Positions 38,671 to 57,173 of a DNA stretch of 64,000 nt are shown one piece after another. Position 1 is the stretch's first letter; every line of letters starts with the position of its first letter. The position numbers and the translations under genes were made by a program. Under the pieces are notes generated by a model. It worked only from the letters and a program-made list of their open reading frames with translations, did not search any database and was not told the DNA's origin. The stretch comes from Gottfriedia acidiceleris (lineage in GTDB: Bacteria > Bacillota > Bacilli > Bacillales > Bacillaceae_G), in contig NZ_NESS01000003.1 in assembly GCF_002128425.1 (NCBI RefSeq), forward strand, positions 1-64,000. The letters run 5' to 3'.

Positions 38671-40161
38671 TTATACATTCTCTCGAAAATTTGTAAGCAT
38701 CCGATCGTTCTTTTCTACTATAAATTTAGGTTTTCTTGTAACTCTACTTACTACTAGCGTTACAGCAAAATTAATAACCATTACAACTAAACCAACGTCA
38801 ATATCTTGTACGACATGAGGAAATGATGGAAACAGAGTTGCTAACGTTGTACCAGTTGTTGTGGAATAAGTAACAGCTGCAACACCAATGATGATTCCAG
38901 CAGCCGCTCCTTGAACTGTTACTGGATTCTTTTTCCAAAGACTAAAATACAATGCTGGGAACAATTGCGCCATAAAGCTGTATGCCATAATATACAGTGT
39001 CATAATTGTTTCGCCACCATTTAAGGTGAAATAAAGTGTCACTAATGCAATTATTGGAACTAGAACCCGAGTTAATTTTATAAGTTGATCATCAGTTGTA
39101 TTTGGCTTCATAACCTTGTAAACATTCTTAGTTAAGATTGTAGTTGCAGATGTTAAAACCAATGAACTTGGTATAAGTGCAGCTAAAGCACCCGAGGCAC
39201 CAATTACTCCTACAAACCAAGGATCAAATGAAATCTTTGCTAGTTTAAATAAAGCTAGATCCACATCTCCACCTTTTAAAGTTGGAGCTTTTAAAATAGC
39301 AGCAAATCCAACAAATAAAGAAAAGACAATAATCATTTGATAGATTGGCATAAATGCAGCATTAACGCGAAGAGCTTTTGCACTCTTTGAAGAGAAAACC
39401 CCCATAAGCATATGAGGAAACATATAGAAGGATAGTGCTAACATGATACTAGTTGTAATAAACCAAGAAACACTTAAACCTTTATCTGGAAATATCAACA
39501 AATCAGGTTTAGCAGTTTGGATTGCCTCAAACATCGGCTGAAAACCACCGTAATAATGTACAGGAAAATAAATTCCTAAGAAGATCACAACAAATAAAAT
39601 TAGAAAGTCTTTAATAACAGCCGTCCAAGCTGAACCATGAATGCCCGAAACTGTTACATAAATTGTTATCGTAAGTACAGCAATCGTAATTGCAATACTC
39701 TGAGGGATTTTTCCATAAGAAGCTTCAGAAACAATAATCCCTAACCCTTTTAACTGCATCGTTAAATATGGAATGATTGAAATGATGCTAATTACTGAAA
39801 CAAGAACCCCTAGTGCTGAACTATTATACTTTTTCGTATAAAAATCAGACTGTGATACAACATTATTTTCTTTTGCATACTTCCAAACAGGAGGTAACAG
39901 CCAATAAGCGATAATAAAGTAAAAGGCATTAAAAGCATATACTGCAGGCATTCCAAAAGAATAGGCACTTCCCGATGCCCCCATAAAAGTAAATGTCGTA
40001 AACATTTCTCCTGCAAGCAATAAAAAAACGAAAAGAGAACCAAAACCTCGTCCACCAATTGACCACTGTTCAAAAGTCATCTCTTTACCTTTACGTGCTT
40101 GTAAGCCTAACCAAATTGATAAAGCTAAAAAACCAAGAATGACAATTAAAGCTGAATTCAC
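38671..40161 (-). CDS. Sodium:solute symporter (SSS family)
   Basis: A 496-aa membrane protein with about 13 helices and SSS-family features (GGRGFGSLFVFLLLAGEMFTTFTFMGASG near the N terminus, FYTKKYNSSALGVLVS, and ALIPSSLVLTSATTILTKNVYK in the middle). Members import amino acids, monocarboxylates, pantothenate or choline-like solutes with Na+. The start is GTG, overlapping the stop codon of the DUF3311 gene by one base, which is a usual pairing for this subgroup. The genome context suggests that it imports the substrate of the Rieske/flavoenzyme pathway. Confidence 0.9.
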   Translation of the reverse strand: MNSALIVILGFLALSIWLGLQARKGKEMTFEQWSIGGRGFGSLFVFLLLAGEMFTTFTFMGASGSAYSFGMPAVYAFNAFYFIIAYWLLPPVWKYAKENNVVSQSDFYTKKYNSSALGVLVSVISIISIIPYLTMQLKGLGIIVSEASYGKIPQSIAITIAVLTITIYVTVSGIHGSAWTAVIKDFLILFVVIFLGIYFPVHYYGGFQPMFEAIQTAKPDLLIFPDKGLSVSWFITTSIMLALSFYMFPHMLMGVFSSKSAKALRVNAAFMPIYQMIIVFSLFVGFAAILKAPTLKGGDVDLALFKLAKISFDPWFVGVIGASGALAALIPSSLVLTSATTILTKNVYKVMKPNTTDDQLIKLTRVLVPIIALVTLYFTLNGGETIMTLYIMAYSFMAQLFPALYFSLWKKNPVTVQGAAAGIIIGVAAVTYSTTTGTTLATLFPSFPHVVQDIDVGLVVMVINFAVTLVVSRVTRKPKFIVEKNDRMLTNFRENV

Positions 40162-40523: not shown

Positions 40524-41555
40524 TTATAAGTCGATCGCTTCTTTAATCATTTCATGGAAGTGTTGCATTGCGTTCTCAGTTGGAGAAAAAATTCCATTTT
40601 CAAATGCTTGAGAATGTAAACCAGATTGCAATAATTCCACTAAATCAAAATCCTCTTCTCGCACTTGATCAACAAATTTAATCATTTCCTCTTCTTCTTT
40701 CGAAATTTCTTCATTCATAAAGAAATAACGATATACTGCCAGCGTTTGGTTGGCATCAATTGGAATCAGTTGTGTTGTCGTCATATTTCCACTTCCAGGA
40801 AATACACTTAACATCATATTTGGCCAGATCCAGTAAAAACGTGTTAAGCTATCATCTTGGTCCTTAACATTTGAACACTGGTAAGAGAATTTATCACAAG
40901 GAACAATGCTGTAATTCGATAGATCAAATGTTTTAGAGAATGATGGATGTGCGACCGGACAATGATCGCACTCTAGGAAATTATCAACTACAGCTTTCCA
41001 ATTTGCTTTAATCAGACGGCGGTTTTCTTTTACTAATTGTAATGAATTCATAAAAGGGTAACGATTTAGTTCATTTATTAACTCTCCGTATTCAACAGAA
41101 AACGCTGGGGCTTTTCTACTTAAGTTTACAAAAATCATAGAGTTCTGTACTTCTAGTTGAATTGACTTCAAACAGTTATATTCTCCTAAATCAATATTTT
41201 TAAAGTTTGGAGCTCGATTGACATGTCCATCCAACTTAAAAGTCCAGCCATGATAAATACATTGTAGGATTTTTTTATTTCCTGATTCACTTTGCTCCAC
41301 CCTTGTACCACGATGTGGGCAAATATTATAAAAAGCGCGTATTTTACCGTCATTAGCATGCGTGACTAAAATCGATTCACCAGCAACCTCAAAAGTGAAA
41401 AAATCACCGACGTTTTTAACTTGACTCATATGACCTATGAAGATCCAATTTTTACTAAAAATCTCTTTTCTTTCTGTATCGAATATCTCTTGGCTGACAT
41501 AAGTTTTATACGGCAATGAAGTTTGTAAAGTTTGTGCTGTTTCCTTTGTAGACAT
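40524..41555 (-). CDS. Rieske non-heme iron oxygenase (quaternary-amine/N-methyl type)
   Basis: A 343-aa ring-hydroxylating-oxygenase alpha-subunit-like protein. The Rieske 2Fe-2S ligands lie in CPHRG (about 80) and CIYHGW (about 100). The mononuclear iron site is NFLECDHCPVAHPSF (about 195-210), with the ExxDHCxxxH pattern of the GbcA/stachydrine demethylase/carnitine oxygenase branch. Such enzymes hydroxylate an N-methyl or neighbouring carbon so that formaldehyde or trimethylamine is released. A GGAGG site precedes the ATG. It is read from the sigma-54 promoter at 41622-41637. No reductase subunit is encoded in the window. Confidence 0.9.
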   Translation of the reverse strand: MSTKETAQTLQTSLPYKTYVSQEIFDTERKEIFSKNWIFIGHMSQVKNVGDFFTFEVAGESILVTHANDGKIRAFYNICPHRGTRVEQSESGNKKILQCIYHGWTFKLDGHVNRAPNFKNIDLGEYNCLKSIQLEVQNSMIFVNLSRKAPAFSVEYGELINELNRYPFMNSLQLVKENRRLIKANWKAVVDNFLECDHCPVAHPSFSKTFDLSNYSIVPCDKFSYQCSNVKDQDDSLTRFYWIWPNMMLSVFPGSGNMTTTQLIPIDANQTLAVYRYFFMNEEISKEEEEMIKFVDQVREEDFDLVELLQSGLHSQAFENGIFSPTENAMQHFHEMIKEAIDL

Positions 41556-41621
41556 AATAATGATTCCTCCTTTTTTTGGATTTCATTTGAGACGAAAATT
41601 CCATCCTTTATTTATTAACCT

Positions 41622-41637
41622 AGCAAGAATTATGCCA
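41622..41637 (-). promoter_or_regulatory. Sigma-54 promoter of the Rieske oxygenase gene
   Basis: Minus strand TGGCATAATTCTTGCT: -24 GG and -12 GC with the correct spacing, matching the TGGCAYrNNNNTTGCW consensus at every fixed position. The start codon is 67 bp downstream. Confidence 0.93.
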
Positions 41638-41713
41638 ATTTTAGATTCCTCTATACAATAAGGAGATAACACTATTTATCTATTTCCAAACTAAAGTAAT
41701 TAACTTATAATTT

Positions 41714-41738
41714 ACTCAATTCAGTCAATTTTAACTCA
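41714..41738 (-). promoter_or_regulatory. Shared upstream activator site 1
   Basis: Two ACTCA blocks (41714 and 41734) exactly 20 bp apart with AGTCA between them (minus strand TGAGT repeats). It lies 77 bp beyond the -24 box. The same arrangement is found before the two other sigma-54 promoters, so it is the likely binding site of the enhancer-binding protein at 41786-43168. Its closeness to that gene also allows autoregulation. Confidence 0.75.
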
Positions 41739-41785
41739 ACATACTATTTTGCGAGATTAAGAATGTTTTTAGAGGAGGTTACGTT

Positions 41786-43168
41786 TTGCCAAATACAACA
41801 AATGACAAACTAAAAATTGAGTTCAGTAATGAGATACTACAAAAAATATTGGACAATTCTCCTAATGAATTTTATGTACTTGATAAAGATGCCCGTATCG
41901 TGTATATAAACAAGGCTTGTGAAAGACATTATGGGATCAAACTCAAAGACGTAGTAGGAAAATCAAACGATGAATTAATTTCAAAAGAATATTGGAAACC
42001 TCTTATTCTCCCACGTTTATTTAAAGAAAAGAAAACGGTCATTATGAAACAAATAAGTTATGTTGGAAAGGAAATCATCACAACAGCCATTCCTTTACTA
42101 AATGATCAGCAGGAAATTGAGCTGATTATCACAACTTCACAAGATGCAAGCTATAAAGACTTATACATACCAGATGAGCAAGAAATAAATGAAGCGGATC
42201 AAGCTGCAATTTATAAAAATAATATCATTACGAATAACAAGGAAATGAGTAATATCGTTAAGATTTGTGAAAAAGTTGCTAAAGTAGATGCAACAGTATT
42301 AATTCAAGGAGAGTCTGGCACAGGAAAAGGAGTAATTGCAAAATATATACATCAGAAGAGCAACCGAAATAAAGCTCCTTTTTTATCTTTAAACTGTGCA
42401 ACGATTCCGGAAGAGCTACTTGAATCAGAACTTTTCGGATACAAAGATGGTGCGTTTACTGGAGCAACAAAAGGTGGCAAACAAGGACTTTTAGAACTTG
42501 CAGACGGTGGAACCGTATTTTTGGATGAGATTGGAGATATCTCACCTAAGGTTCAAGCAAAGCTTCTAAAAGTCATTCAAGAGTTTGAATTTATGCCTGT
42601 TGGAGGCAAGCAATCAAAAAAAGTTAATATCCGTATCCTTTCTGCAACTAATCGAAATTTATATGAAATGGTACAAAATAAGGAATTTAGAGAAGACTTA
42701 TATTATCGCCTTCATGTAGTGAATTTAAAAATACCACCACTACGAGAAAGAAAAGAAGATATCATTCCATTAACCTACCATTTTCTTTCTGAGTTTAATA
42801 GAAAACACCAAATGAATACCATCATTTGTGAAGAAGCTTTGAATACGTTTTACAACTATTCATGGCCTGGGAATATTCGACAGTTAGAAAATATGCTTGA
42901 AAGCCTTGTCGTAACAAGTGATGGCATTATAAAAGTACAGGACTTGACTGATTTATTAATTGAAAACAAAAAAGAGAGTCCGGTCAATGAAGAAATAAGT
43001 GACTGCTCGCTTCTAGCTTCTCTAGAAGAAGTTGAGAGAAACATAGTGATTAATTCCTATACAAAATATAGGAATACAAGAAAAGTAGCAGATGATTTAG
43101 ACATTAGCCAGTCAAAAGCAGCTAGATTAGTTCGTAAGTACTGTAATGAATTAGACTTCTACAAATAA
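41786..43168 (+). CDS. Sigma-54-dependent enhancer-binding protein with PAS domain
   Basis: A 460-aa activator: PAS sensor (about 12-125), AAA+ domain (about 145-375) with Walker A GESGTGKG, the sigma-54 contact loop ELFGYKDGAFTGA, Walker B TVFLDEIGD and the R-finger region REDLYYRLHVV, and a C-terminal Fis-type helix-turn-helix (NTRKVADDLDISQSKAARLVRKY). It opens promoters held by sigma-54 RNA polymerase. The start is TTG behind GAGGAGG. It is divergent from the Rieske gene and is the only activator of this type in the window. Three sigma-54 promoters with one shared upstream element surround it. The PAS ligand is unknown. Confidence 0.95.
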   Translation: MPNTTNDKLKIEFSNEILQKILDNSPNEFYVLDKDARIVYINKACERHYGIKLKDVVGKSNDELISKEYWKPLILPRLFKEKKTVIMKQISYVGKEIITTAIPLLNDQQEIELIITTSQDASYKDLYIPDEQEINEADQAAIYKNNIITNNKEMSNIVKICEKVAKVDATVLIQGESGTGKGVIAKYIHQKSNRNKAPFLSLNCATIPEELLESELFGYKDGAFTGATKGGKQGLLELADGGTVFLDEIGDISPKVQAKLLKVIQEFEFMPVGGKQSKKVNIRILSATNRNLYEMVQNKEFREDLYYRLHVVNLKIPPLRERKEDIIPLTYHFLSEFNRKHQMNTIICEEALNTFYNYSWPGNIRQLENMLESLVVTSDGIIKVQDLTDLLIENKKESPVNEEISDCSLLASLEEVERNIVINSYTKYRNTRKVADDLDISQSKAARLVRKYCNELDFYK

Positions 43169-43184
43169 ACGTTAAACAAAAAAT

Positions 43185-43213
43185 AAAATACCCGGTAAAT
43201 AGCCGGGTATTTT
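43185..43213. terminator. Bidirectional terminator between activator and ALDH operon
   Basis: AAAATACCCGG (43185-43195) pairs with CCGGGTATTTT (43203-43213); it ends both converging transcription units. Confidence 0.88.
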
Positions 43214-43227
43214 ACTAAATGAGCTGA

Positions 43228-44670
43228 TTACATTTGATCCATATATACTGTTTTGACTTGTGTATAAAAGTCGATTGCTGCCTTTCCTTGTTCGCGGGAC
43301 CCAGTGCTTGAATTTTTGCAGCCGCCAAAAGGTACTTGTGGCTCTGATCCTGCTGTTTCATTGTTTACATGCACTAGACCAACTTCAATGTCTTCAACAA
43401 ACCGCTGTGCAATTGTAAAATTGTTTGTACAAATTGCTGCGCTTAAACCATATTCAGTATCATTAGCCATCCCTACTGCTTCTTCATAGTTTTTCGCTTT
43501 AAAGAGCGCAATTACAGGTCCGAATATTTCTTCTCGAGCAATACGAGCATCTGAAGAGACATTTTCAAAAATTGTAGGCTGTACATAAAAACCATTTTTA
43601 AGTTCTTCATCAGCAGGAACTTCTCCACCGTATAATAGGGTTGCCTCATCCTTTCCAGCTTCAATCATAGCAAGCACACCGTCAAGTTGTGATTGAGATA
43701 CAGTTGGACCGACAAATGTGTCATCATGAAGTGGATTTCCTACTTTTAATGTTTTTGTCCTTTCTACAAGTCGGTCACAGAATGCTTTATAAATTGCTTC
43801 TTCCACAATTACCCTACTCGTTGCTGTACACTTTTGACCAGTCGATCTGAAAGCACCACTCACGGCAATTTCAACTGCTTTTTCTATATTTGCATCAGCA
43901 AGTACGATAAGTGGATTTTTCCCACCTAATTCCATCTGTACTTTCTTTCCTTTGGCTGTAGCCTTCTGCTGAATCTGACTTCCAACCTTATTAGATCCTG
44001 TAAATGAAATAGCTTTAATATAAGGATGTTCTACTAATTCTGTTCCAACGACAGATCCTCTACCAAATACACAGTTTACAACCCCCGGTGGAATACCAGC
44101 TTCATCAAGTGCTTTTATAACATGATATACTGATTTTGGTGTCAAATCAGCTGGTTTAATCACTACCGTATTTCCGTAAACAAGTGCAGGAGCCATTTTC
44201 CATACAGGAATGGCAATTGGAAAATTCCAAGGCGTAATCAATCCAATTGGTCCGATTGGCGTTCGAGTCGTATATAAGAATGTGTTTGTGTTACCAGATG
44301 GAATCACTTCTCCAACTGGCTGTCTTGCTTCTCCTGCAAAATATTCAAGGATGTTAATCGCTCGCTGTGTTTCTCCAATACCTTCAGCAAGTGTTTTCCC
44401 TTCTTCTAGTGTTAAATCCCTTCCTACTTCATGGACTTTTGCTTTTAATATATCTGCTGCTTTTTGAAGGTATGAAGCTCGTTGTTGGTATGAAAGCTTC
44501 TTCCATGATAAAAAGGCTGTTTTGGCTGCAAGAATGGCTTGTCGTGCATCCTCTTCTGTACTCGAAGGAAATTCGCCTAATGACTCTCCATTATGCGGAC
44601 TGTGGTTTTCCCGATATTCACCTAAAGTAGGTTGTTTCCATTGTCCATTAATATAGTTTGCAAAACGCAT
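43228..44670 (-). CDS. NAD(P)-dependent aldehyde dehydrogenase
   Basis: A 480-aa aldehyde dehydrogenase. Features: GLITPWNFPIAIPVWKMAPAL (about 137-157), the cofactor-site SFTGSNKVGSQI, catalytic Glu in MELGGKNP (about 250-257), catalytic Cys in GQKCTATSR (about 286) and EIFGPVIALF. It resembles 2-ketoglutarate semialdehyde and other dehydrogenases of omega- or 2-oxo-derived aldehydes. GGGGGAG precedes the ATG. It is last in the CaiB-ACAD-ThDP-ALDH operon and probably oxidises the aldehyde made by the ThDP enzyme upstream. Confidence 0.93.
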   Translation of the reverse strand: MRFANYINGQWKQPTLGEYRENHSPHNGESLGEFPSSTEEDARQAILAAKTAFLSWKKLSYQQRASYLQKAADILKAKVHEVGRDLTLEEGKTLAEGIGETQRAINILEYFAGEARQPVGEVIPSGNTNTFLYTTRTPIGPIGLITPWNFPIAIPVWKMAPALVYGNTVVIKPADLTPKSVYHVIKALDEAGIPPGVVNCVFGRGSVVGTELVEHPYIKAISFTGSNKVGSQIQQKATAKGKKVQMELGGKNPLIVLADANIEKAVEIAVSGAFRSTGQKCTATSRVIVEEAIYKAFCDRLVERTKTLKVGNPLHDDTFVGPTVSQSQLDGVLAMIEAGKDEATLLYGGEVPADEELKNGFYVQPTIFENVSSDARIAREEIFGPVIALFKAKNYEEAVGMANDTEYGLSAAICTNNFTIAQRFVEDIEVGLVHVNNETAGSEPQVPFGGCKNSSTGSREQGKAAIDFYTQVKTVYMDQM

Positions 44671-44737
44671 ATCTTCTCCCCCAATTAGATTATTTTTATA
44701 CTAATTAACTAATAGAGTCTATTACTACCAATCTATA

Positions 44738-46396
44738 TTATTTGCTAAAAAGTACATTCATCTTAGACTTATCTTGACCAACCGATAATATCTTCGGATT
44801 TGTTACAACTTCGATCACAGCTGGGCGCCCTGATGATAATGCCCGCTTAAGTGCTGGTGCAAAATCAGTATTATTTTCGACCTTCTGACCGTATGCACCA
44901 AATAAACTTGCAAGCTCAGCAAAGTTTGGATTAGATAATTCTGTCCCAATTACTCGATCTGGAAAATGCTTTTCTTGATGTGTTCGAATTGTTCCATACA
45001 GATTGTTGTTCACCACAATCGAAATGACAGGAATGTTATAACGTACGGCTGTTTCGATTTCTTGAAGCGTCATCATAAAGCCCCCATCACCCGAAAAGGA
45101 AACAACTGTCTTATGCGGCTGTGCGAGCTTTGCTCCAATAGCAGCTGGTAGCCCATACCCCATCGCTCCAGATGTTGGTCCGACATATGTATTTTCATGC
45201 TCAAAGCGATAATATCGAGAAAGCCAGCCAAAAAAGTTCCCTGCATCGTTCGTAATAATCGTATCTTTTGGAAGATGAGAGACGATATCATACATAAAAC
45301 CATCCAAATCTACATATTCATCCGTGTAATCTTCCTTTACCTTTGAAAAATTCATGTACTCGTTATGTAGCTTTTCTACACGCATTTCATCTGAATTTAA
45401 TGGCGTAGATAAAGCAATTGTTAATGCTTCCACTAAAAAAGCTTTCGCATCAGCCGTAACTGCCAAAGAAGGAGCATAAACTTTACCGAATACTTCATCT
45501 GAAATGTCAATGTGAATTAGTTTACCTTTTCCTGAAAGCAATGAATAATCTTGCGTTCCTACTTGGGAAAATCTTGTACCTAATGCGATCACTAAGTCTG
45601 CATTGTCTATCGCTTCAAGTAAATATTTTGGTGTTCCAAATCCTAGCCAACCTGCATAACAAGGATGTGAATTTGGAAAAGCATCGAAACGACGGAATGC
45701 AGTAACGACAGGTATTTGTACTGTTTCAGCAAATTTAACTAATAAAGGAACAGCTTGTGAACGAATCACTCCCCCACCAGCTATGAGAATCGGGCGTTTG
45801 GCATTTTGAAGCATTTCTACTACTTGCTGAACGCTCTCTTTATGTGGACGAGCCGGTTGAGACTGATAGACTGGGATTTCTACCATTTCAGCTGTATCTT
45901 CTAACATGTCATGAGGTAATGCAACTAGCACAGGACCAGGACGACCTGACCGAGCAATATGAAATGCACGATGTAATAGCTCTGGAATTCGTTCTACTCG
46001 GTCAATCTCCACTGTCCATTTACACAAATGACTAAACATTCCTACAAGATTGACCTCTTGAAATGCTTCCTTATCTTTAAAAGGACGCTCTACTTGTCCA
46101 ATAAGCGCAACTAGTGGGGTGGAATCTTGGCTGGCAGTATGGATCCCAATTGCCAAATTTGAAGCTCCAACACCACGAGTTGCCATACAAACACCTACTT
46201 CACCTGATGCTTTTGCGTACCCTTCCGCCATAAATGAAGCTCCACCTTCATGTCTAGCTGAAATCAAGCTAATTTCTGGATGTTCATATAACGCATCCAT
46301 AACGCCTAGATAACTCTCACCAGGTACACAAAAAACTTTATTTACCCCTTCCTTTGCCATCACATTGACTACTGCTTTTCCACCGCTAATTTTCAT
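44738..46396 (-). CDS. Thiamine-diphosphate enzyme, 2-oxo-acid decarboxylase-like (acetolactate-synthase fold)
   Basis: A 552-aa ThDP enzyme with the three usual domains: N-terminal pyrimidine-binding part with the activating Glu in ISARHEGGASFMAEGYA (about 49-65), central domain (about 190-330) and C-terminal PP domain with the GDGGFMMTLQEIETAVRYNIPVISIVVNN motif, split over about 437-465. The GDG...NN signature is intact. It resembles acetolactate synthase and 5-guanidino-2-oxopentanoate decarboxylase. Next to an aldehyde dehydrogenase, a 2-oxo-acid decarboxylase role is inferred. I chose ATG at 46396 behind GGGAGTG over the ATG at 46423. Confidence 0.9.
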   Translation of the reverse strand: MKISGGKAVVNVMAKEGVNKVFCVPGESYLGVMDALYEHPEISLISARHEGGASFMAEGYAKASGEVGVCMATRGVGASNLAIGIHTASQDSTPLVALIGQVERPFKDKEAFQEVNLVGMFSHLCKWTVEIDRVERIPELLHRAFHIARSGRPGPVLVALPHDMLEDTAEMVEIPVYQSQPARPHKESVQQVVEMLQNAKRPILIAGGGVIRSQAVPLLVKFAETVQIPVVTAFRRFDAFPNSHPCYAGWLGFGTPKYLLEAIDNADLVIALGTRFSQVGTQDYSLLSGKGKLIHIDISDEVFGKVYAPSLAVTADAKAFLVEALTIALSTPLNSDEMRVEKLHNEYMNFSKVKEDYTDEYVDLDGFMYDIVSHLPKDTIITNDAGNFFGWLSRYYRFEHENTYVGPTSGAMGYGLPAAIGAKLAQPHKTVVSFSGDGGFMMTLQEIETAVRYNIPVISIVVNNNLYGTIRTHQEKHFPDRVIGTELSNPNFAELASLFGAYGQKVENNTDFAPALKRALSSGRPAVIEVVTNPKILSVGQDKSKMNVLFSK

Positions 46397-46472
46397 AACA
46401 AAACACTCCCTTCTCCTATGCAATTACAATATTTTCCTTTTAAACTAGCGATCTATTTTCTACTCAAATTTT

Positions 46473-47690
46473 TTAAGATTTAACAGTTTCTACGTTAACC
46501 TCTTCGAATGGCCAAGCTGGAAGCATTTTTCTTAAAACTTTATCTTCTCTATAACCTAGATCATATTCAGCTTGCATAATTGTATGAACCTCTCTTGTTC
46601 CTTCATAAATGACTGGTGCTTTAGAGTTTCTTAAATAACGCTCAACTGGGAACTCATTTGAAAATCCATAAGCACCGTGTATTTGTACAGCGTCATTAGC
46701 TGCCTCGTTTGCTGCATTACAAGAAATCCATTTTGCTAGTGATGTTTCTCTAGTATTACGTTTTCCACTATTTTTTAACCAGCCAGCTTTATAGACTAGT
46801 AGACGAGAGATTTCAAGATTTGAAGACATTTTAGCGATCATTTGTTGTACTAATTGATGTTTTCCGATTTCTTTACCAAAGGTTTTTCGCTCATGACAAT
46901 ATTTTACGCTTGCTTCAAGTGATGCCTGAATCAATCCACAAGCACCAGCTGCAACTGTAAACCTTCCATTATCAAGCGCAGACATTGCAATTTTAAACCC
47001 TTCACCTTCGAATCCTAATAAGTTTTCAGCTGGTACTCTTACATCATCTAAAAATACCTCACCAGTATTTCCAGCTCTAATTCCCATCTTCCCCTTAATT
47101 GCTTTTGTAGAAACTCCTTCAAAAGTACGTTCTACGATAAAGCATGAAATTCCGTGGTGTTTTAAGTCATGATTAGTTTTTGCAAAAATCAAGAAATGAT
47201 CAGCTACATCGCATAGAGAAATCCATGTTTTTGATCCGTTTAAAATATAACTATCTCCATCTTTTACAGCCGTTGTCGCCATTGCTACCACATCAGATCC
47301 TGCATTTGGCTCTGTTAACCCAAATGCACCAATTTTCTTACCTTGCGCTTGAGGAACAAGGTACTTTTTCTTTTGTTCTTCAGTTCCCCATTGAAGTAAT
47401 GTCATACTGTTTAATCCCGTATGTACTGAAACAGCCGTACGGAAAGCTGTATCTCCACGCTCTAACTCCTCGCATATGATTGCTAAAGTATTATAGTCCA
47501 TTCCAACTCCACCATATTGTTCTGGAATACATACACCCATTAGTTCTAACTCAGAAAGTCGTTTTAGAATATTTACTTCAAAATGTCCTTTTTCATCCCA
47601 TTCCTTAATAAATGGTATGATTTCACGATCTACAAACGATCTAACTACCTTCCTTACACTTTTTTGCTCTTCAGTTAATGAAAAATTCAT
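46473..47690 (-). CDS. Acyl-CoA dehydrogenase
   Basis: A 405-aa flavin-dependent acyl-CoA dehydrogenase that adds an alpha-beta double bond to a CoA ester. It shows GAFGLTEPNAGSDV (about 132-145), WISLCDVADHFLIFA, the FAD-contact region and the C-terminal catalytic glutamate in VIYEGTREVHTIMQAEYDLG (about 370). GAGGAGG precedes the ATG. It lies 13 bp after the CoA transferase gene and belongs to the same sigma-54 operon, so its likely substrate is the thioester made by that transferase. The chain type cannot be read from sequence. Confidence 0.93.
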   Translation of the reverse strand: MNFSLTEEQKSVRKVVRSFVDREIIPFIKEWDEKGHFEVNILKRLSELELMGVCIPEQYGGVGMDYNTLAIICEELERGDTAFRTAVSVHTGLNSMTLLQWGTEEQKKKYLVPQAQGKKIGAFGLTEPNAGSDVVAMATTAVKDGDSYILNGSKTWISLCDVADHFLIFAKTNHDLKHHGISCFIVERTFEGVSTKAIKGKMGIRAGNTGEVFLDDVRVPAENLLGFEGEGFKIAMSALDNGRFTVAAGACGLIQASLEASVKYCHERKTFGKEIGKHQLVQQMIAKMSSNLEISRLLVYKAGWLKNSGKRNTRETSLAKWISCNAANEAANDAVQIHGAYGFSNEFPVERYLRNSKAPVIYEGTREVHTIMQAEYDLGYREDKVLRKMLPAWPFEEVNVETVKS

Positions 47691-47703
47691 TTTAATTTCC
47701 TCC

Positions 47704-48888
47704 TCAAATTGTTTTATTTAATCTCATCTCATCTATTTCTAATTGTGAATAGCCTAATTTACTCATCACTTCTTCAGTGTGCTCTCCATGCAATGGTGGA
47801 TGTCTTAAAACTTCGATTGGTGTTTTTGATAGTTTTAACGGTGATCCAACTAACTTGAGATCATTTATGAATGGATGATTTACTTCTATCACCATATCCC
47901 TTGATTTAGCTTGTTCAGACTGCAGGGCTTCACTTACGTTATAAATCGGTCCATTTGGAATACCATTTTTATCTAAGAGGACTTTCCACTCATTTTTACT
48001 TTTTGTTTTTATTTTATTTGAAATTATTCCCTCAATTTGTTTTCTATACTGCAAACGACCAGCGTTTGTCCTATATAATTCATCTAATAAAACCGGTTCT
48101 TCAATAAGTAACGCAAATCGATTAAACTGTTGATCATTACCGACTGCGATTACCATCTCACCATCACTTGCTGAAAAAACTTGATATGGAACAATATTAG
48201 GGTGGTAATTTCCTAATCGCTCAGGAATAGCACCACTACATAAATAATTACTAGCAACATTTACTAAAGCGGCTAACTGGGAGTCAAATAAAGAAATATC
48301 AACCTCTTGACCTTCGCCTGTACGATTTCGATGTTGTAATGCTGCCAAAATTCCTATACAAGTGAACATCCCCGTTAATACGTCGGAAATGGCTACCCCT
48401 ACTTTTGTGGGCTCAGCATTTTTTTCTCCAGTTATGCTCATTAATCCAGACATCGCCTGAATAATATAATCATAACCAGGTAGTGATGAGTTAGGACCAT
48501 GGCTACCAAATCCGCTAATTGATGCTAGAATAATATCCTCTTTTATCTCTTTCATTTCCTCATAAGAGAAACCTAGTTTTGCTAATGTACCAGGTTTAAA
48601 GTTTTGGACGACAACATTTGCTTCGGAAATAAGATTTTTTAAAACTTCTTTTCCCTTATCACTTTTCAAATTTAAAGTAATACCTTGCTTATTTCGATTA
48701 GCACATAAATAATATGCACTTTCTCCTTCAAGAAAAGGAGGTCCCCATCCTCTTGTTTCATCCCCACCGCTAATACTTTCAATTTTAATTACCTCAGCCC
48801 CAAGATCCCCAAGGATCATCGTACAAAAGGGACCGGCTAGCACCCTAGTTAAATCAATAATTTTGATACCATGTAATGCCCCCTGCAA
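47704..48888 (-). CDS. CaiB/BaiF family CoA transferase (class III)
   Basis: A 394-aa class III CoA transferase. The N terminus LHGIKIIDLTRVLAGPFCTMILGDLGAEVIKIE, split over about 4-36, is typical, with the nucleophile Asp in SLPGYDYIIQAMSGLMSITG (about 153-157) and the late DKNGIPNGPIYNVSEAL motif. It moves CoA from one acyl group to a carboxylate. I chose TTG at 48888 because GAGGTGATC lies just before it and the length then fits the family; the ATG at 48936 would add 16 residues with no homology. It is first in the four-gene operon behind the sigma-54 promoter at 49036. Confidence 0.92.
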   Translation of the reverse strand: MQGALHGIKIIDLTRVLAGPFCTMILGDLGAEVIKIESISGGDETRGWGPPFLEGESAYYLCANRNKQGITLNLKSDKGKEVLKNLISEANVVVQNFKPGTLAKLGFSYEEMKEIKEDIILASISGFGSHGPNSSLPGYDYIIQAMSGLMSITGEKNAEPTKVGVAISDVLTGMFTCIGILAALQHRNRTGEGQEVDISLFDSQLAALVNVASNYLCSGAIPERLGNYHPNIVPYQVFSASDGEMVIAVGNDQQFNRFALLIEEPVLLDELYRTNAGRLQYRKQIEGIISNKIKTKSKNEWKVLLDKNGIPNGPIYNVSEALQSEQAKSRDMVIEVNHPFINDLKLVGSPLKLSKTPIEVLRHPPLHGEHTEEVMSKLGYSQLEIDEMRLNKTI

Positions 48889-49035
48889 TTTGATCACCTC
48901 TTCGTCGATTTCTTTTGCTAATTTACTAATTTTCATTGGGCAATTTAAATGGTTACCAATGTGTATTTTTGTTGTTGCATGTATTTAGAAAATTCAAGGT
49001 ATATTAGCCCTCCATTTTCGTTATACTTTTTATAA

Positions 49036-49051
49036 TGCAAAACCCATGCCA
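49036..49051 (-). promoter_or_regulatory. Sigma-54 promoter of the CoA-transferase operon
   Basis: Minus strand TGGCATGGGTTTTGCA, a full match to the -24/-12 consensus, 148 bp upstream of the CaiB start. It serves CaiB, acyl-CoA dehydrogenase, ThDP enzyme and ALDH. Confidence 0.92.
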
Positions 49052-49126
49052 AACTCAAAATTCTTATTATTATTAAATATAGGTTGTATTTATGGATCTA
49101 ATCAGTCAAAAATAATATTAAAATTC

Positions 49127-49151
49127 ACTCAAAACCGTCATTTTTAACTCA
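49127..49151 (-). promoter_or_regulatory. Shared upstream activator site 2
   Basis: ACTCA blocks at 49127 and 49147, exactly 20 bp apart with CGTCA between them, 76 bp beyond the -24 box. The layout is the same as at sites 1 and 3. Confidence 0.75.
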
Positions 49152-49228
49152 TTAAAAAATTTGCTACTAGAGAATCTATTTATCTAATTCATAAATAAAA
49201 AATTCTTTCGAAATAGCCTATAAATGTA

Positions 49229-49262
49229 AAAAACCCACGAAGAAATTTGTATTCTTCGTGGA
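49229..49262 (-). terminator. Terminator of the permease-dehydrogenase operon
   Basis: CCACGAAGAA pairs with TTCTTCGTGG; the six A's at 49228-49233 give a U tract on the minus strand. It ends the upstream operon before the sigma-54 promoter. Confidence 0.85.
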
Positions 49263-49285
49263 TTTATAAGTATTATTGAACTATT

Positions 49286-50431
49286 TTAACACTCTATCAA
49301 ATCTCTAACTGTTGGCTCAAATAGTTCGCAAGCAATATCTCTTTGATATCGATTTTGCTTTTTAGCTTCTGTAAATAAGTTAAATGTATTCTTTCTGCTT
49401 AATCTTTCAATATCATCTATAACTGCCTGAGGTTCAGGTTTCACTAATCCAAAAATAACAGCGTCATAAAATCTAATTGCTCCTAAGTTCGCTACAAAAT
49501 CATTTACCACGTCAATACCTCTTTGTTTGATAATCTTATCACCTTCAGCAGAGATTGGAATATTTGCAGCCTCTACAATTAAACTCGCCTTTACTTTATT
49601 TGCATTTGATACATTAATGACATCCTCTAAAGCTGCCGGAATCAAGATGTCACAATCTACATCAAGCCATTGTGTGTTGCTTCTTACTACATAGTTCGGA
49701 TCAAAAAACTCTCGATTCATTTCTCCATGTGCATTTTTATGGTCAATTAATTTCTGAACATCTAATCCCTCTTCACACGTAACTAGTAGATTTGCATCAG
49801 AAATGCCGACGATTTTATAGCCTAGCTGTGATAATTTCAATGCACAACTTGCTCCTACACAACCAAATCCTTGAATAACTACTTTCGCTACTTTATTTTC
49901 ACCTTTAAACTTCCATGCTTCATCTGCGCAAAATGCAACGCCGTAGCCTGTTACAGCATCGTTCAGAAGAAAACAATCTATTTTAGTAGCTAGCAGATTA
50001 TTAAAATCTTTTATTCCATTTTGAACACTTACATCTTCCTTCATCGATTTTGTTAAAGGTATTCCTATTTTGAATTCATCAAATACTCTTAGTACGTCCT
50101 CATACTTTGTACCTAAATCACTTCCTAAAGATACTCCTGCTTCTACATATGGCTTCATTGCAATCAAAAACCTTCTTAGTACGTCATAAGCATCTCGGGC
50201 TTTATAATCATAAGCAATTCCTGCTTTACATCCACCTGTTGTGACACTTTCTGAAGCCATATATTTATAAGCCATTGCCTCTGCCAAACGTTCTACTTCT
50301 TCCCTTGTCACTGTTGGATGCATTCTTGTCCCACCACCAGCATACCCTTTGACAAAGTTATGTACCACCAACCACCCCTTTGCATCTGTTTCACTATCAT
50401 TCCACTCTACAACTAGGTAAGGTTTTTTCAT
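49286..50431 (-). CDS. Divergent Glu/Leu/Phe/Val-type amino-acid dehydrogenase
   Basis: A 381-aa NAD(P)-dependent dehydrogenase of the Glu/Leu/Phe/Val superfamily, which deaminates an amino acid to its 2-oxo acid. The first domain has GGTRMHP, the lysine-containing AMAYKYMASE and GGCKAGIAYD, where common members read GGAKGGI, and GSDLGTKYEDV in place of the usual D(V/M)NT. The Rossmann domain follows with VIQGFGCVGASCALKLSQLGYKI, split at about 185-207. The altered substrate-site motifs suggest an amino acid other than glutamate or leucine. GGAGG precedes the ATG. It follows the permease by 77 bp in a sigma-54 operon. Confidence 0.88.
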   Translation of the reverse strand: MKKPYLVVEWNDSETDAKGWLVVHNFVKGYAGGGTRMHPTVTREEVERLAEAMAYKYMASESVTTGGCKAGIAYDYKARDAYDVLRRFLIAMKPYVEAGVSLGSDLGTKYEDVLRVFDEFKIGIPLTKSMKEDVSVQNGIKDFNNLLATKIDCFLLNDAVTGYGVAFCADEAWKFKGENKVAKVVIQGFGCVGASCALKLSQLGYKIVGISDANLLVTCEEGLDVQKLIDHKNAHGEMNREFFDPNYVVRSNTQWLDVDCDILIPAALEDVINVSNANKVKASLIVEAANIPISAEGDKIIKQRGIDVVNDFVANLGAIRFYDAVIFGLVKPEPQAVIDDIERLSRKNTFNLFTEAKKQNRYQRDIACELFEPTVRDLIEC

Positions 50432-50508
50432 ACCAAGTAGCCTCCTTTTTAGATTGTATCTTGAAATAGATTATTTGTGTAAGAATCTAAAAGCTGTATG
50501 TAAATTGA

Positions 50509-51936
50509 TCATATACTCTGCTGAGTTGGTATTTCTTCTTGTTCTTTCTTATTTCCAATCTTGCCTCTATTTTTTCCATGACGTAAAAAGTAATAAAGAT
50601 AGCTTACACCCATGAAGCCTAAACCACCTATTAAGGAAGAACGTTGTGTAGGATCAAAAGCCATAAATACGATGGAAATTCCACATAAAACTAGACATAG
50701 AATAGGTATTAATGGGAATAGTGGAACTTTGTACTTTAATTCCTTAACATTTCCACCATTTTTAATAAATTGCCTTCGATAATTGTATTGCGATAAGGCA
50801 ATTGCCATCCAACTGAATGTACCGGCTAGTCCAGTTACAGAAAGCAGAACTACAAACACTGTTTGTGCAGATACTACACTTGTAAGTAATGATACTAGTG
50901 CAAAAATAAGACTAAATAATACTGCATTAAACGGGACACCTCGGGAATTTACTTTACCTAAAAATGATGGTGCCATATCACTTTTGGAAAGTGACCAAAG
51001 CATTCTAGAACATACATATAATCCCGAATTACCTACAGATAACAAGGCAGTTAATATAACTAGATTCATAATATCAGCTGCATATGGTATACCTACACTA
51101 TCAAATACTGCAACAAATGGACTTTCTACTACTCCTGCATGCCTCCATGGAATCAAAGCAGCTAATACTAAAATTGCTAACACATAAAAAATCAGGACAC
51201 GAAAAATGATACTACGAATTGCTTTTGGTAGAGTCTTTTCTGGTGTTTCGCTTTCACCAGCTGCAATTCCGACTACTTCTGCCCCTTGAAATGCAAATAC
51301 AACTGCCATCATAGTTGAAAATATAGCAGAAAACCCATGTGGGAAAAGCCCACCATCTTTTGTAAAATTAGTAAACAAAGGTGCCGAATTACCTTTATGG
51401 CCAAACCCAAATATAGTTGCTGCTCCAATTAGTATAAAAGCTATAACTGCTAATACTTTAATGCCTGCAAACCAAAATTCTGCCTCAGCATAGCCCTTTA
51501 CACTAAGAATATTTAAAGCTAACAAAAGGGCTATAAACACAAGACACCAGATCCAAACAGGAACATGTGGAAACCACCTTTGCATCAATATTCCGGCTGC
51601 AGTGAATTCTAATCCAACCGTAGTTGCCCAACTTAGCCAATACATCCAGCCAATCGTAAAACCGGTACCAGGACCAATGTACTTTGTGGCATAAGTCTTA
51701 AATGAACCTGTAACTGGCATTGAAATTGATAATTCACCTAAACAAACCATTACAAGGTACATCACCAATCCACCGAACAAATAAGCAACAACGGCACCAC
51801 CTGGACCAGCTTGATTAATCGTAAGGCCTGAACCTAAAAATAAACCTGTACCGATTACTCCTCCGAGTGAAATCATAAACAAATGCCGACTTTTCATGGA
51901 ACGTTGTAACTGACCTTTTTCATTATTAGAATCCAT
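50509..51936 (-). CDS. Amino-acid permease (APC superfamily, AAT family)
   Basis: A 475-aa, 12-helix amino-acid permease. The AAT signature is clear near the N terminus (SLGGVIGTGLFLGSG, GPGGAVVAYLFGGLVMYLVM, LGELSISMPVTGSFKTYATKY). It looks closest to S-methylmethionine/threonine/lysine permease types (MmuP, YbxG), but the substrate cannot be fixed. GGGTGG precedes the ATG. It is first in an operon with the amino-acid dehydrogenase, read from the sigma-54 promoter at 52140, which makes it the probable importer of that enzyme's substrate. Confidence 0.93.
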   Translation of the reverse strand: MDSNNEKGQLQRSMKSRHLFMISLGGVIGTGLFLGSGLTINQAGPGGAVVAYLFGGLVMYLVMVCLGELSISMPVTGSFKTYATKYIGPGTGFTIGWMYWLSWATTVGLEFTAAGILMQRWFPHVPVWIWCLVFIALLLALNILSVKGYAEAEFWFAGIKVLAVIAFILIGAATIFGFGHKGNSAPLFTNFTKDGGLFPHGFSAIFSTMMAVVFAFQGAEVVGIAAGESETPEKTLPKAIRSIIFRVLIFYVLAILVLAALIPWRHAGVVESPFVAVFDSVGIPYAADIMNLVILTALLSVGNSGLYVCSRMLWSLSKSDMAPSFLGKVNSRGVPFNAVLFSLIFALVSLLTSVVSAQTVFVVLLSVTGLAGTFSWMAIALSQYNYRRQFIKNGGNVKELKYKVPLFPLIPILCLVLCGISIVFMAFDPTQRSSLIGGLGFMGVSYLYYFLRHGKNRGKIGNKKEQEEIPTQQSI

Positions 51937-52139
51937 AAATGTACCACCCTTATTTTAGAATATTCAGAAAAAATAAAACAAAAAAAAAGAAAAATAGTTC
52001 TACTAAATTAACATAAACCCTTGTAAACCTTTACATTTTCTAATAATCCTAAAAAAATCACTGCAGAAATTAAACAAAGTAACAATTGTGCCTCCTTAAC
52101 ATACTCCCTTACTTCACCTCCACTTCCTACTAATCATTA

Positions 52140-52155
52140 AGCAAAATTCATGCCA
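52140..52155 (-). promoter_or_regulatory. Sigma-54 promoter of the permease-dehydrogenase operon
   Basis: Minus strand TGGCATGAATTTTGCT, a full match to the -24/-12 consensus. The permease start lies about 200 bp downstream. Confidence 0.92.
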
Positions 52156-52228
52156 ACAAGAAAACAAGATAAAACCAACCATTAAGCCATTCCTTAAATC
52201 TAAAACCAACTAATATATTTTAAAATCT

Positions 52229-52253
52229 ACTCAATTCATTTATTTTAGACTCA
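52229..52253 (-). promoter_or_regulatory. Shared upstream activator site 3
   Basis: ACTCA blocks at 52229 and 52249, exactly 20 bp apart, 74 bp beyond the -24 box. The middle block (TCATTTA) is less conserved than at the two other sites. Confidence 0.7.
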
Positions 52254-56123: not shown

Positions 56124-57173
56124 CTAGCTATTTATTAAACTACGTTTTTGTTCTACTAATGGCATAACCTGTTTTGAAAAGCGTTCCATTTCCTCTAATT
56201 GAGGTGAAAATTGTAATAATAATAAGTCTAAGCCAGCTTCTTCATATTGTAAAATTCGGTCTGCAATATGCTCAGGAGTTCCAACTAAGTTTGGTCGTAG
56301 GCCTCGATTCGAAACAGAGTAATCTTGTAATTGGATTTGTTGCTCTAATTGTGATTTTGTAGTGAAGTCTTTAAAACCAGCATAACCGCTTGAATCTTTC
56401 ACAGTCGTAATTTTTTCTAGCTCAGCAAAAGCCTCTTCTTCTGTATCTCTACAAATAACATAAGCGGCCATACCAAAAGAACTTAATGGTGCATTGCCAG
56501 TTTGCTCACGGCGTACCTTCATATCTGTTACTTTCTGATTAATTTCTTCAACTGTTCCACCGTGCATCACATATGCGTCACATTTTTCAACGATCGTTTG
56601 CTTCCCTTTTTCACTTTCACCTCCTGCATACAGAATTGGGTTTGGTCTTTGAACAGGCTTTGGAGCAAGCTTCGTATCCTTTAAATCGTAAAATTTACCA
56701 GAATAATTGAACGTTTCTTCTGTCCATAAGCCCTTTAAGACATCAATAAACTCTTCTGTACGAGCATAGCGCTCATCATGCTCTGTAAAAATACCGCCAT
56801 ATTGACTCGCTTCTTCTGCCCACCAAGCAGAAACAACGTTTAACGTAAAACGGCCGTTACTGATTTGATCGATATTTGCGGCCATTTTTGCTGTTACTGC
56901 AGGATTATGAAAACCTGGACGAATCGCGGTCATAATTTCGATTTTTTCCGTCACCGCAGCAAGCGCCGCTGCTGTTGACCAAGCTTCAAGTGAATCATGC
57001 TCAGGTCCTTTAATATCATTTAAATATAATTCAGCTATTAAGGTAGTCGAGTATCCCCATTTTTCAGCTGATTGAATAACCTCTTTAGCATATTCAAATG
57101 TTGGTGGCATGCTTTCGTCTTCCACATTTCGTAACCAGCCTCCAAAAATCGGTAACCAAAAACCATATTTCAT
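56124..57173 (-). CDS. LLM-class flavin-dependent monooxygenase (SsuD/SfnG-like)
   Basis: A 349-aa bacterial-luciferase-like monooxygenase using FMNH2 and oxygen. Family elements are KYGFWLPIFGGWL (start), GRFTLNVVSAWWAEEASQYG (about 110-129), HDERYARTEEFIDVLKGLW (about 133-151) and GTPEHIADRILQYEEAGLDLLLLQF. Relatives cleave C-S bonds of alkanesulfonates or dimethylsulfone to free sulfite. A SAM-I riboswitch upstream means that it is expressed when S-adenosylmethionine is low, in keeping with sulfur scavenging. GGAGAG precedes the ATG. No ssuABC transporter or flavin reductase lies beside it. Confidence 0.9.
   Translation of the reverse strand: MKYGFWLPIFGGWLRNVEDESMPPTFEYAKEVIQSAEKWGYSTTLIAELYLNDIKGPEHDSLEAWSTAAALAAVTEKIEIMTAIRPGFHNPAVTAKMAANIDQISNGRFTLNVVSAWWAEEASQYGGIFTEHDERYARTEEFIDVLKGLWTEETFNYSGKFYDLKDTKLAPKPVQRPNPILYAGGESEKGKQTIVEKCDAYVMHGGTVEEINQKVTDMKVRREQTGNAPLSSFGMAAYVICRDTEEEAFAELEKITTVKDSSGYAGFKDFTTKSQLEQQIQLQDYSVSNRGLRPNLVGTPEHIADRILQYEEAGLDLLLLQFSPQLEEMERFSKQVMPLVEQKRSLINS

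What the first reader, a model, noticed from the sequence alone, without database searches (positions are those of the whole stretch)
41622..52253. Three sigma-54 promoters sharing one upstream activator motif
At 41622, 49036 and 52140 there are full -24/-12 matches. Beyond each, at 74-77 bp, lie two ACTCA blocks exactly 20 bp (two helical turns) apart, in two sites with GTCA between them. Nothing in standard annotation reports this. It defines a regulon: Rieske gene, CaiB-ACAD-ThDP-ALDH, and permease-dehydrogenase, all answering to the activator at 41786-43168.
Basis: partly seen in the sequence, partly recalled or inferred. Interest (0 to 1): 0.9.

Follow-up and report, generated by a model that had tools for sequence, protein, structure and literature searches.

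The report
Sigma-54 regulon under one activator
A Bacillus-like bacterium probably uses one activator protein and a repeated DNA switch to turn on three neighbouring gene sets together, which look like a pathway for breaking down a methylated amino acid.

Summary
The window has exactly three strict sigma-54 promoters and three TGAGT-N15-TGAGT elements, paired at 73-76 bp. The 4.77-Mb genome has 4 such elements; of its 48 promoter-like matches only these three carry one. The composite pattern occurs in 11 of 397 genomes of the order, reversed control 0. All 11 are among the 21 with a close activator homologue. Hits in other genera and orders lie beside that activator, a Rieske or an ALDH gene.

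The motif is better read as two tandem 18-bp dyads (TGAGTTA-N4-TAACTCA-like). The proximal one starts about 80 bp upstream of -24; the distal one lies 20 bp (31-33 bp in many relatives) further out. Activator binding is inferred, not shown.

The regulon genes (betaine-type Rieske oxygenase, transporter, TMADH-like flavoprotein, amino-acid permease, ELFV dehydrogenase, ThDP enzyme, ALDH, glutarate-type CoA-transferase, acyl-CoA dehydrogenase) suggest catabolism of a quaternary-ammonium amino acid, perhaps N6-trimethyllysine, to glutaryl-CoA. In four genomes of another family six of these genes lie in a row beside a different activator, so enzymes stay together while the regulator changes.

The parts
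41622..41637 (-). sigma-54 -24/-12 promoter of the Rieske unit (TTGGCATAATTCTTGCT)
   Evidence: strict consensus match; 15 of 18 aligned columns invariant in 5 genomes
41701..41738 (-). UAS 1: tandem activator sites, distal dyad 41721-41738 (TGAGTTAAAATTGACTGA), proximal degenerate dyad 41701-41718
   Evidence: block 35 of 37 columns invariant in 5 genomes
49036..49051 (-). sigma-54 promoter of the CaiB-ACAD-ThDP-ALDH unit
   Evidence: 13 of 17 columns invariant
49114..49151 (-). UAS 2: tandem activator sites (TGAGTTAAAAATGACGGT + TGAGTGAATTTTAATATT)
   Evidence: block 26 of 37 columns invariant against 12 of 68 just upstream
52140..52155 (-). sigma-54 promoter of the permease-dehydrogenase unit
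   Evidence: 15 of 17 columns invariant
52216..52253 (-). UAS 3: tandem activator sites (TGAGTCTAAAATAAATGA + TGAGTAGATTTTAAAATA)
   Evidence: block 35 of 37 columns invariant
41786..43168 (+). PAS-AAA+-HTH sigma-54 activator (460 aa, TTG start); GESGTGK, GAFTGA and FLDEI motifs present
   Evidence: Pfam Sigma54_activat 1.5e-69, PAS 1.8e-7; motifs
41683..41711 (+). possible sigma-A promoter of the activator (TTTCCA-17-TATAAT), abutting UAS 1
   Evidence: 10 of 12 consensus match; such matches are no commoner than in shuffles, so weak
40524..41555 (-). Rieske oxygenase, best solved relative carnitine monooxygenase oxygenase subunit
   Evidence: 6y8j E 2.1e-56; CPH...CIYH cluster motif
38671..40161 (-). 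SSF family transporter (362 bp after the Rieske gene; co-transcription likely, not shown)
   Evidence: PF00474 1e-26
36627..38621 (-). OYE/FadH-type flavoprotein, related to 2,4-dienoyl-CoA reductase and trimethylamine dehydrogenase
47704..48936 (-). CaiB/BaiF CoA-transferase, nearest to succinate-hydroxymethylglutarate CoA-transferase
   Evidence: 9br7 E 4.4e-101; NF052585 best NCBIfam hit but below cut-off
46473..47690 (-). acyl-CoA dehydrogenase, possibly glutaryl-CoA-dehydrogenase-like (Arg84 aligns with an Arg of 3mpi; Glu363)
44738..46423 (-). ThDP enzyme (PRK08199 subfamily), proposed 2-oxo-acid decarboxylase
   Evidence: NF006052 716.9 bits, cut-off 539
43228..44670 (-). aldehyde dehydrogenase, nearest NCBIfam alpha-ketoglutaric semialdehyde dehydrogenase (below cut-off)
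49286..50431 (-). ELFV amino-acid dehydrogenase
   Evidence: PF00208 9.5e-41
50509..51936 (-). APC-family amino-acid permease
   Evidence: PF00324 2.5e-140
49231..49265 (-). terminator-like hairpin after the permease-dehydrogenase unit
   Evidence: 14 pairs + T tail (11 such matches in the region against 8.7 in shuffles)
43182..43216 (-). terminator-like hairpin after the CaiB-ALDH unit
   Evidence: 14 pairs + T tail (same caution)

Best explanation
The three operons form one sigma-54 (SigL) regulon. Sigma-54 RNA polymerase sits at each -24/-12 promoter. The PAS-AAA+-HTH activator encoded at 41786-43168 binds as dimers to two tandem 18-bp dyads (idealised TGAGTTA-N4-TAACTCA), the proximal one starting about 80 bp upstream of the -24 element and the distal one two helical turns further out. 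On a signal sensed by its PAS domain it loops and opens the promoter through its GAFTGA loop. UAS 1 lies 47 bp upstream of the activator's own start codon, so it may also repress itself. Shown: motif, spacing, conservation, co-occurrence with the activator. Inferred: binding, activation, autoregulation, ligand. The genes fit one catabolic route for a quaternary-ammonium amino acid (most likely N6-trimethyllysine): permease; ELFV deamination; ThDP decarboxylation; ALDH to 5-trimethylammoniovalerate; Rieske oxygenase releasing trimethylamine; glutarate semialdehyde to glutarate; CaiB to glutaryl-CoA; acyl-CoA dehydrogenase; with the TMADH-like enzyme using the amine. The substrate is a hypothesis (about 0.35), apart from the confidence given here, which is for the regulon.
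For: Exact pairing of 3 promoters with 3 elements in the window; 3 of 4 elements in the genome are these; 3 of 48 promoter matches score high, next best 11.9. Composite pattern in 5 of 19 family genomes, the same 5 with a >=94% activator orthologue; 11 of 397 order genomes, all among the 21 with an activator homologue at E<=1e-125, reversed control 0; in the class sample 5 more genomes with 7 hits, five beside an activator homologue of 57-65%, two in front of an ALDH gene. Independent of the pattern search: of the 11 activator loci that lack the exact pattern and are not the ~50% genus paralogue, all 11 have a [TC]GAGT arm 78-81 bp before a TGGCA at one promoter of the locus. UAS columns invariant in 5 genomes: 35/37, 26/37, 35/37, against 39/60, 12/68, 26/60 just upstream and 45/64, 27/64, 35/63 in the spacer. 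Dyad symmetry above shuffles, z 7.2 and 4.8, 0 of 5000. Arm-to-promoter distances phase at 10.5 bp, R 0.71, 4 of 20000. HTH conserved in the 28 sequences aligned. One sigma-54 gene in the genome. Enzyme set recurs in a row elsewhere.
Against: No binding or expression data. The genome has 14 matches to the activator domain, 9 of them near full length; the link to this one rests on co-occurrence and position. 10 of the 21 activator-positive order genomes lack the exact composite pattern; 8 of these have a 31-33 bp or single-dyad variant, G005 and G008 only the paralogue. In G210 and G315 the promoter next to the activator does not have the 78-81 bp arm (72 and none); another promoter of the locus does. 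In four genomes of family f29 the SSF-ThDP-ELFV-permease-ALDH-Rieske set lies beside a different activator, with no TGAGTN14-16TGAGT in the fetched 20 kb, so control is not fixed to the pathway. The right arm of the proximal dyad is weak in this genus (1-3 of 5 matches). CaiB has an 83-84% paralogue in 10 of the 11 genus genomes searched (second copy in the five regulon genomes, only copy in five others; none in G009). No reductase for the Rieske enzyme was seen among the adjacent genes annotated.
Confidence: 0.88

Rival explanations
1. The three sites are bound by another sigma-54 activator of the genome, and the neighbouring activator serves elsewhere.
For: The genome has 9 near full-length activator domains, and sigma-54 sites can be served by unlinked activators (general knowledge).
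Against: In the family and order samples every genome with the composite pattern has this activator or a homologue, and in other genera and orders the element mostly lies between a homologue and a divergent target gene. Two other activators of this genome, read off by frame length only (714 and 476 aa), also occur in genus genomes that lack the element; the remaining ones were not traced.
Confidence: 0.06
2. The shared element is only common descent of duplicated promoters, without a function as activator site.
For: The three operons are neighbours, and the fourth site in G016 precedes a 137-aa match to a permease copy, which looks like a duplicate.
Against: Outside the UAS and -24/-12 the three window promoters are no more alike than shuffles (61-bp spacers: 26, 19, 21 identities against 19-20; one pair reached by 102 of 2000 shuffles, the others by far more; upstream stretches not above null). 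UAS columns are kept while flanks and spacers diverge. The same element with the same spacing stands in other orders before other genes.
Confidence: 0.04
3. Chance matches to an AT-rich consensus.
For: Four TGAGTN15TGAGT occur in the reversed control of the genome, so the element alone is not rare.
Against: The composite is 0 in the reversed control of all 19, 397 and 398 genomes searched.
Confidence: 0.01
4. Regulon as proposed, but the substrate is carnitine, gamma-butyrobetaine or another betaine, the permease and ELFV dehydrogenase serving an unrelated amino acid. (Concerns the substrate only, so its odds do not add to the others.)
For: The Rieske protein is nearest the carnitine monooxygenase oxygenase subunit; in L143 an activator homologue stands beside a Rieske + ALDH + tartrate-dehydrogenase-family + BCCT set, and L138 and L152 have Rieske + BCCT.
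Against: ELFV, permease and Rieske genes are adjacent in G367, and with SSF, ThDP and ALDH in G307, G346, G287 and G365, so the amino-acid steps and the Rieske step belong together; CaiB and ACAD point to a five-carbon dicarboxylate.
Confidence: 0.4

Closest known systems
SoxR of Bacillus thuringiensis HD73 (sarcosine; PMC4941409, passages seen)
   Same: sigma-54 activator serving two -24/-12 promoters of a demethylation pathway from one site, divergent target, inhibits its own expression
   Different: Binding site there is an 11-bp inverted repeat of A/T tracts, unlike TGAGT-ACTCA; target is sarcosine oxidase, not a Rieske oxygenase
PrdR (NF041552)
   Same: Best NCBIfam match of the activator (371.1 bits)
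   Different: Far below the cut-off of 795; [quoted passage not shown] no proline-reductase genes among the neighbours annotated
UAS regulons reconstructed in Clostridiales (PMC6615313, section 6 and passages)
   Same: Same kind of evidence and anatomy: conserved activator sites upstream of -24/-12, often several, regulons of up to six operons
   Different: Different activators and motifs; no hit for Rieske, carnitine, betaine or TGAGT in its main text; supplements not read
Carnitine monooxygenase oxygenase subunit (6y8j)
   Same: Nearest solved Rieske protein, E 2.1e-56
   Different: The NCBIfam equivalogs listed are well below cut-off; substrate not known; no adjacent reductase seen
DavB/DavA route from trimethyllysine to delta-valerobetaine (PMC11773067, abstract and passages)
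   Same: Same proposed starting compound and C5 betaine intermediate
   Different: Here the route would go by deamination, decarboxylation and aldehyde oxidation instead of lysine monooxygenase and amidase, and on to glutaryl-CoA

Membership tests
sigma-54 activator (bEBP) regulon | AAA+ domain with GAFTGA loop and Walker motifs | tested here: met
   Pfam PF00158 1.5e-69; GESGTGK, GAFTGA, FLDEI at 175, 222, 245
sigma-54 activator (bEBP) regulon | Fis-like C-terminal HTH | tested here: inconclusive
   HTH_50 24.9 bits, cut-off 27; conserved HTH segment in the 28 sequences aligned of 30 given, two dropped by the script's motif filter
sigma-54 activator (bEBP) regulon | -24/-12 promoters and a sigma-54 gene | tested here: met
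   three strict promoters; one PF04963 gene
sigma-54 activator (bEBP) regulon | conserved activator sites upstream, in helical phase | tested here: met
sigma-54 activator (bEBP) regulon | protein binds the sites and activates the promoters | not testable with these tools
   needs footprint and mutants
PrdR | NCBIfam NF041552 cut-off 795 bits | tested here: not met
   371.1 bits
PrdR | UAS TGT-N10-12-ACA (Clostridiales) | tested here: not met
   sites are TGAGT-N8-ACTCA-like
CntA carnitine monooxygenase | Rieske cluster motif CXH...CXXH | tested here: met
   residues 79-102
CntA carnitine monooxygenase | curated family score | tested here: inconclusive
   no CntA model appeared among the 6 NCBIfam rows; the best, NF058607 glycine betaine monooxygenase, 159 bits, cut-off 670, is not met
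glutaryl-CoA dehydrogenase | curated family score NF045552 (470 bits) | tested here: not met
   378.5 bits
glutaryl-CoA dehydrogenase | Arg for the distal carboxylate and Glu base (roles recalled) | tested here: met
   Arg84 aligned with an Arg of 3mpi and absent in 4l1f; Glu363 present
succinate-glutarate CoA-transferase | curated family score NF052585 (750 bits) | tested here: not met
   401.7 bits, though the best hit; best solved relative 9br7 E 4.4e-101

The most novel reading that the evidence does not exclude
The regulon encodes an undescribed aerobic pathway from N6-trimethyllysine (or a close quaternary-ammonium amino acid) to trimethylamine and glutaryl-CoA, and its activator founds a family of betaine-sensing sigma-54 activators in Bacilli that share one HTH and one tandem-dyad code, pairing with Rieske oxygenases for different betaines.
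Probability: 0.33. Interest if true: 0.75.

Novelty: new member of a known kind. Interest (0 to 1): 0.55.

Why it matters
It gives an unannotated regulator a predicted DNA code, a nearly fixed promoter geometry and a testable gene set, seen in several families of Bacilli. It gives a handle on how these bacteria may break down trimethylated amino acids and carnitine-type betaines, sources of trimethylamine. It also shows the same enzyme set beside a different sigma-54 activator in another family.

Tried and rejected
Chance: rejected by the reversed-pattern controls of the composite; the element alone is not above its control. PrdR membership: rejected. Promoter duplication: the three window promoters are not alike outside the elements. 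Fourth regulon member in this genome: the only other promoter with a weak score (11.9; C23:370002) is an orphan promoter in front of a C-terminal SSF fragment, apparently the scar of the lost paralogous locus, so I count no member. The fourth pattern hit in G016 precedes a 137-aa permease match. A DMSP or S-methylmethionine route was considered from the permease's best NCBIfam name and dropped because CaiB/ACAD point to glutarate. A sigma-70 scan gave fewer hits than shuffles (43 against a mean of 60.1), so the activator promoter is only a suggestion. No megablast match of window 40524-43168 in 72,556 plasmid records.

Paper searches (listings with starts of abstracts unless said): sigma-54+Bacillus+enhancer binding protein+regulon+Firmicutes 3 papers; Bacillus+SigL+sigma-54+Rieske 0; sigma 54/B. 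thuringiensis set 42, 20 listed; carnitine+Rieske+Bacillus+sigma-54 one, off topic; trimethyllysine+Rieske 13; trimethyllysine+bacteria+degradation+glutarate+trimethylamine 2; carnitine monooxygenase+CntA+Bacillus+regulator 5; trimethyllysine/valerobetaine/catabolism/operon 12; sigma54/carnitine/Bacillaceae set 201, 20 listed. Passages of PMC4428206, PMC3162934 and PMC12316311 had no hit for Rieske or betaine. No title or abstract start listed describes this regulon; absence from print is claimed only for these searches, and supplements were not read.

Only 15 hand-picked sites of 30 were used for the symmetry and phasing tests (one per lineage or operon, so that near-identical copies did not count twice). 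The pattern itself fixes the TGAGT arms, a gap of 14-16 and a spacer of 60-90, so only the distribution within these limits and the protein-found loci are free of it.
Full report
OBSERVATION. All stated elements are there. The window (34.4% G+C) contains three strict TGGCAN6TTGCW sites and three TGAGTN15TGAGT sites, each promoter having one element upstream on the same strand, with 76, 75 and 73 bp between. The whole genome (4,770,625 bases, 45 contigs) has 4 such elements, three of them these, and the reversed pattern also gives 4, so the element by itself is at background; its place is not. The strict promoter pattern gives 48 matches against 5 for the reversed one; ten of the 48 share nearly one sequence. 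A weight matrix made from 13 sites of four other genomes, without this genome, was scanned over up to 260 bp before all 48: the three scored 52.5, 51.1 and 48.5, the next 11.9, and the rest 1.8 or less. These training sites are orthologous to the ones tested, so this shows specificity rather than independence.

CO-OCCURRENCE WITH THE ACTIVATOR. In the family sample the composite pattern is present in 5 of 19 genomes (3, 3, 3, 3 and 4 hits; control 0), exactly the 5 with an activator of 94-100% identity. In the order sample it is in 11 of 397 genomes (23 hits; control 0 in every genome), and all 11 are among the 21 that hold an activator homologue at E<=1e-125. Ten of the 21 lack the exact pattern; they are taken up below. 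The 7 hits outside the genus lie beside an activator gene of 51-64% identity in tblastn (51-67% in the genome search), a Rieske gene, or both. In the class sample 6 of 398 genomes match (control 0). The 7 hits outside this genome stand beside activator homologues of 57-65% (five hits, four of them also with a Rieske gene in the 3-kb locus) or in front of an ALDH gene (two hits; one 2.8 kb from the activator, one on a 4.8-kb contig). Two of the three hits of G014 are on another contig than its activator, and the fourth hit of G016 is about 30 kb from it.

ANATOMY OF THE ELEMENT. Among the 30 pattern hits, 25 have the arms 20 bp apart, 4 at 21, 1 at 19; the proximal arm starts 78-82 bp before TGGCA in 24 of 30, at 68-71 in 5 and at 93 in 1. 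In a hand-picked set of 15 the distances are in phase at 10.5 bp (R 0.71, uniform mean 0.23, 4 of 20,000 draws as high). Each arm opens an 18-bp dyad: complementarity is 0.56 (null 0.30, z 7.2) for the distal and 0.48 (null 0.31, z 4.8) for the proximal copy, 0 of 5000 shuffles. Loci found by protein search and not by the pattern confirm the geometry. Of the 27 activator rows, 11 are at loci with the pattern, 5 are the ~50% genus paralogue, and 11 are others without it: G210, G367, G388, G365b, G346, G307b, G314, G287b, G061, G315, G202. All 11 have a [TC]GAGT arm 78-81 bp before TGGCA at one promoter of the locus; in G210 and G315 this is not the promoter next to the activator (there 72 bp and none). 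Nine have a second arm 31-33 bp further out in the same promoter, G315 likewise at its second promoter, and G202 has one dyad only. Dyads such as TGAGTTAATTATAACTCA (G388, G498) have perfectly inverted 7-bp arms, TGAGTTA and TAACTCA. Three relatives carry three copies at 20-bp steps (G365, G307, G287). Six loci of the ~50% paralogue have related but differently placed arms; 5 of 6 have one at 82 bp.

CONSERVATION. Across the five genomes of the genus the UAS block has 35/37, 26/37 and 35/37 invariant columns, against 39/60, 12/68 and 26/60 just upstream and 45/64, 27/64 and 35/63 in the spacer; -24/-12 has 15/18, 13/17 and 15/17. In the CaiB promoter two genomes have 12 bp less of spacer. Between the three window promoters the spacers and the stretches upstream are no more alike than shuffles; the closest pair (26 of 61) was reached by 102 of 2000.

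TRANSCRIPTION UNITS. Terminator-like hairpins at 49265-49231 and 43216-43182 (minus strand) lie after the permease-dehydrogenase and CaiB-ALDH units; such matches are 11 in the region against 8.7 in shuffles, though these two have 14 pairs. The Rieske gene is followed by an SSF transporter after 362 bp and an OYE-type flavoprotein; no terminator-like hairpin was reported in that gap.

ACTIVATOR. PAS, AAA+ with GAFTGA, and a Fis-like HTH below the Pfam cut-off. The C-terminal HTH is strongly conserved in 28 aligned sequences, this one included; 30 were given and two more distant ones were dropped by the script's filter. This agrees with a shared site. It is not PrdR (371.1 of 795 bits). A TATAAT with a weak -35 lies at the edge of UAS 1, which would allow autorepression, as reported for SoxR (PMC4941409, passages).

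PATHWAY. The Rieske protein is nearest to the carnitine monooxygenase oxygenase subunit. CaiB is nearest to succinate-hydroxymethylglutarate CoA-transferase. The acyl-CoA dehydrogenase has glutaryl-CoA dehydrogenase 3mpi as second best solved relative and an Arg (84) that aligns with an Arg of it and is missing in the best hit 4l1f; that such an Arg holds the distal carboxylate is recalled. The OYE protein matches trimethylamine dehydrogenase, but 2,4-dienoyl-CoA reductase and NCR better. ELFV orthologues occur in 12 of 397 genomes of the order, 10 of which have the activator homologue (not G347, G378). In G307, G346, G287 and G365 SSF, ThDP, ELFV, permease, ALDH and Rieske genes (59-80% identical) lie in a row beside another activator and a 320-360-aa gene; in G307 these were read as a PrpR_N-type activator and a 2-hydroxyacid dehydrogenase. 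In G367 ELFV, permease and Rieske genes are adjacent. So these steps form a functional unit, seen independently of the window; CaiB and ACAD are not in it. Amino acid uptake, deamination, decarboxylation, aldehyde oxidation, Rieske cleavage of a quaternary amine, and glutarate activation fit N6-trimethyllysine. Bacterial conversion of trimethyllysine to delta-valerobetaine is described by DavB/DavA (PMC11773067, passages). The substrate is an inference from relatives: of the NCBIfam rows shown, only the ThDP enzyme's best one reaches its cut-off, and only one ALDH is present for two aldehyde steps.

LIMITS. No binding or expression data; genomes in the samples are related, so counts are not independent events; CaiB has an 83-84% paralogue in 10 of the 11 genomes of the genus that were searched for it, in five of them as the only copy; the order and class samples overlap in part.

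CHANGES ON CHECKING. 

Noticed in passing
L034 (G000:C23:370002, minus strand): An orphan sigma-54 promoter with the paralogue-type UAS stands directly before a C-terminal fragment of an SSF transporter gene: apparently a deletion that removed a Rieske/ALDH/activator locus still present in G005, G008, G010, G012, G013 and G016.
   Followed up: partly
L100:8572-9268 (G016): A fourth regulon-type promoter with UAS precedes only a 137-aa match to the N-terminus of the permease.
   Followed up: partly
L111:7838-7927 (G013): The SSF transporter gene of the Rieske unit gives only a 30-residue match in G013, and the CaiB match there has one internal TAG.
   Followed up: no
L143, L104: Paralogous loci: Rieske + ALDH beside an activator homologue; L143 adds a tartrate-dehydrogenase-family gene, a BCCT transporter and, as first gene after the promoter, a thioredoxin-reductase-like flavoprotein, which may be the electron donor.
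   Followed up: partly
G000:C12, C17, C23, C25, C41 (ten sites TGGCAG[AT]TTAGTTGC[AT]): Ten of the 48 promoter matches share nearly one sequence and look like copies in a repeated element rather than promoters.
   Followed up: no
G000:C42:107679-121701: A stretch with a 714-aa activator, several sigma-54 promoter matches and an 83% CaiB paralogue: perhaps a second sigma-54 controlled glutarate-type locus.
   Followed up: no
window 56124-57173 and 58059-59561: Luciferase-like monooxygenase and a flavin amine oxidase family gene near the regulon, without the UAS.
   Followed up: no
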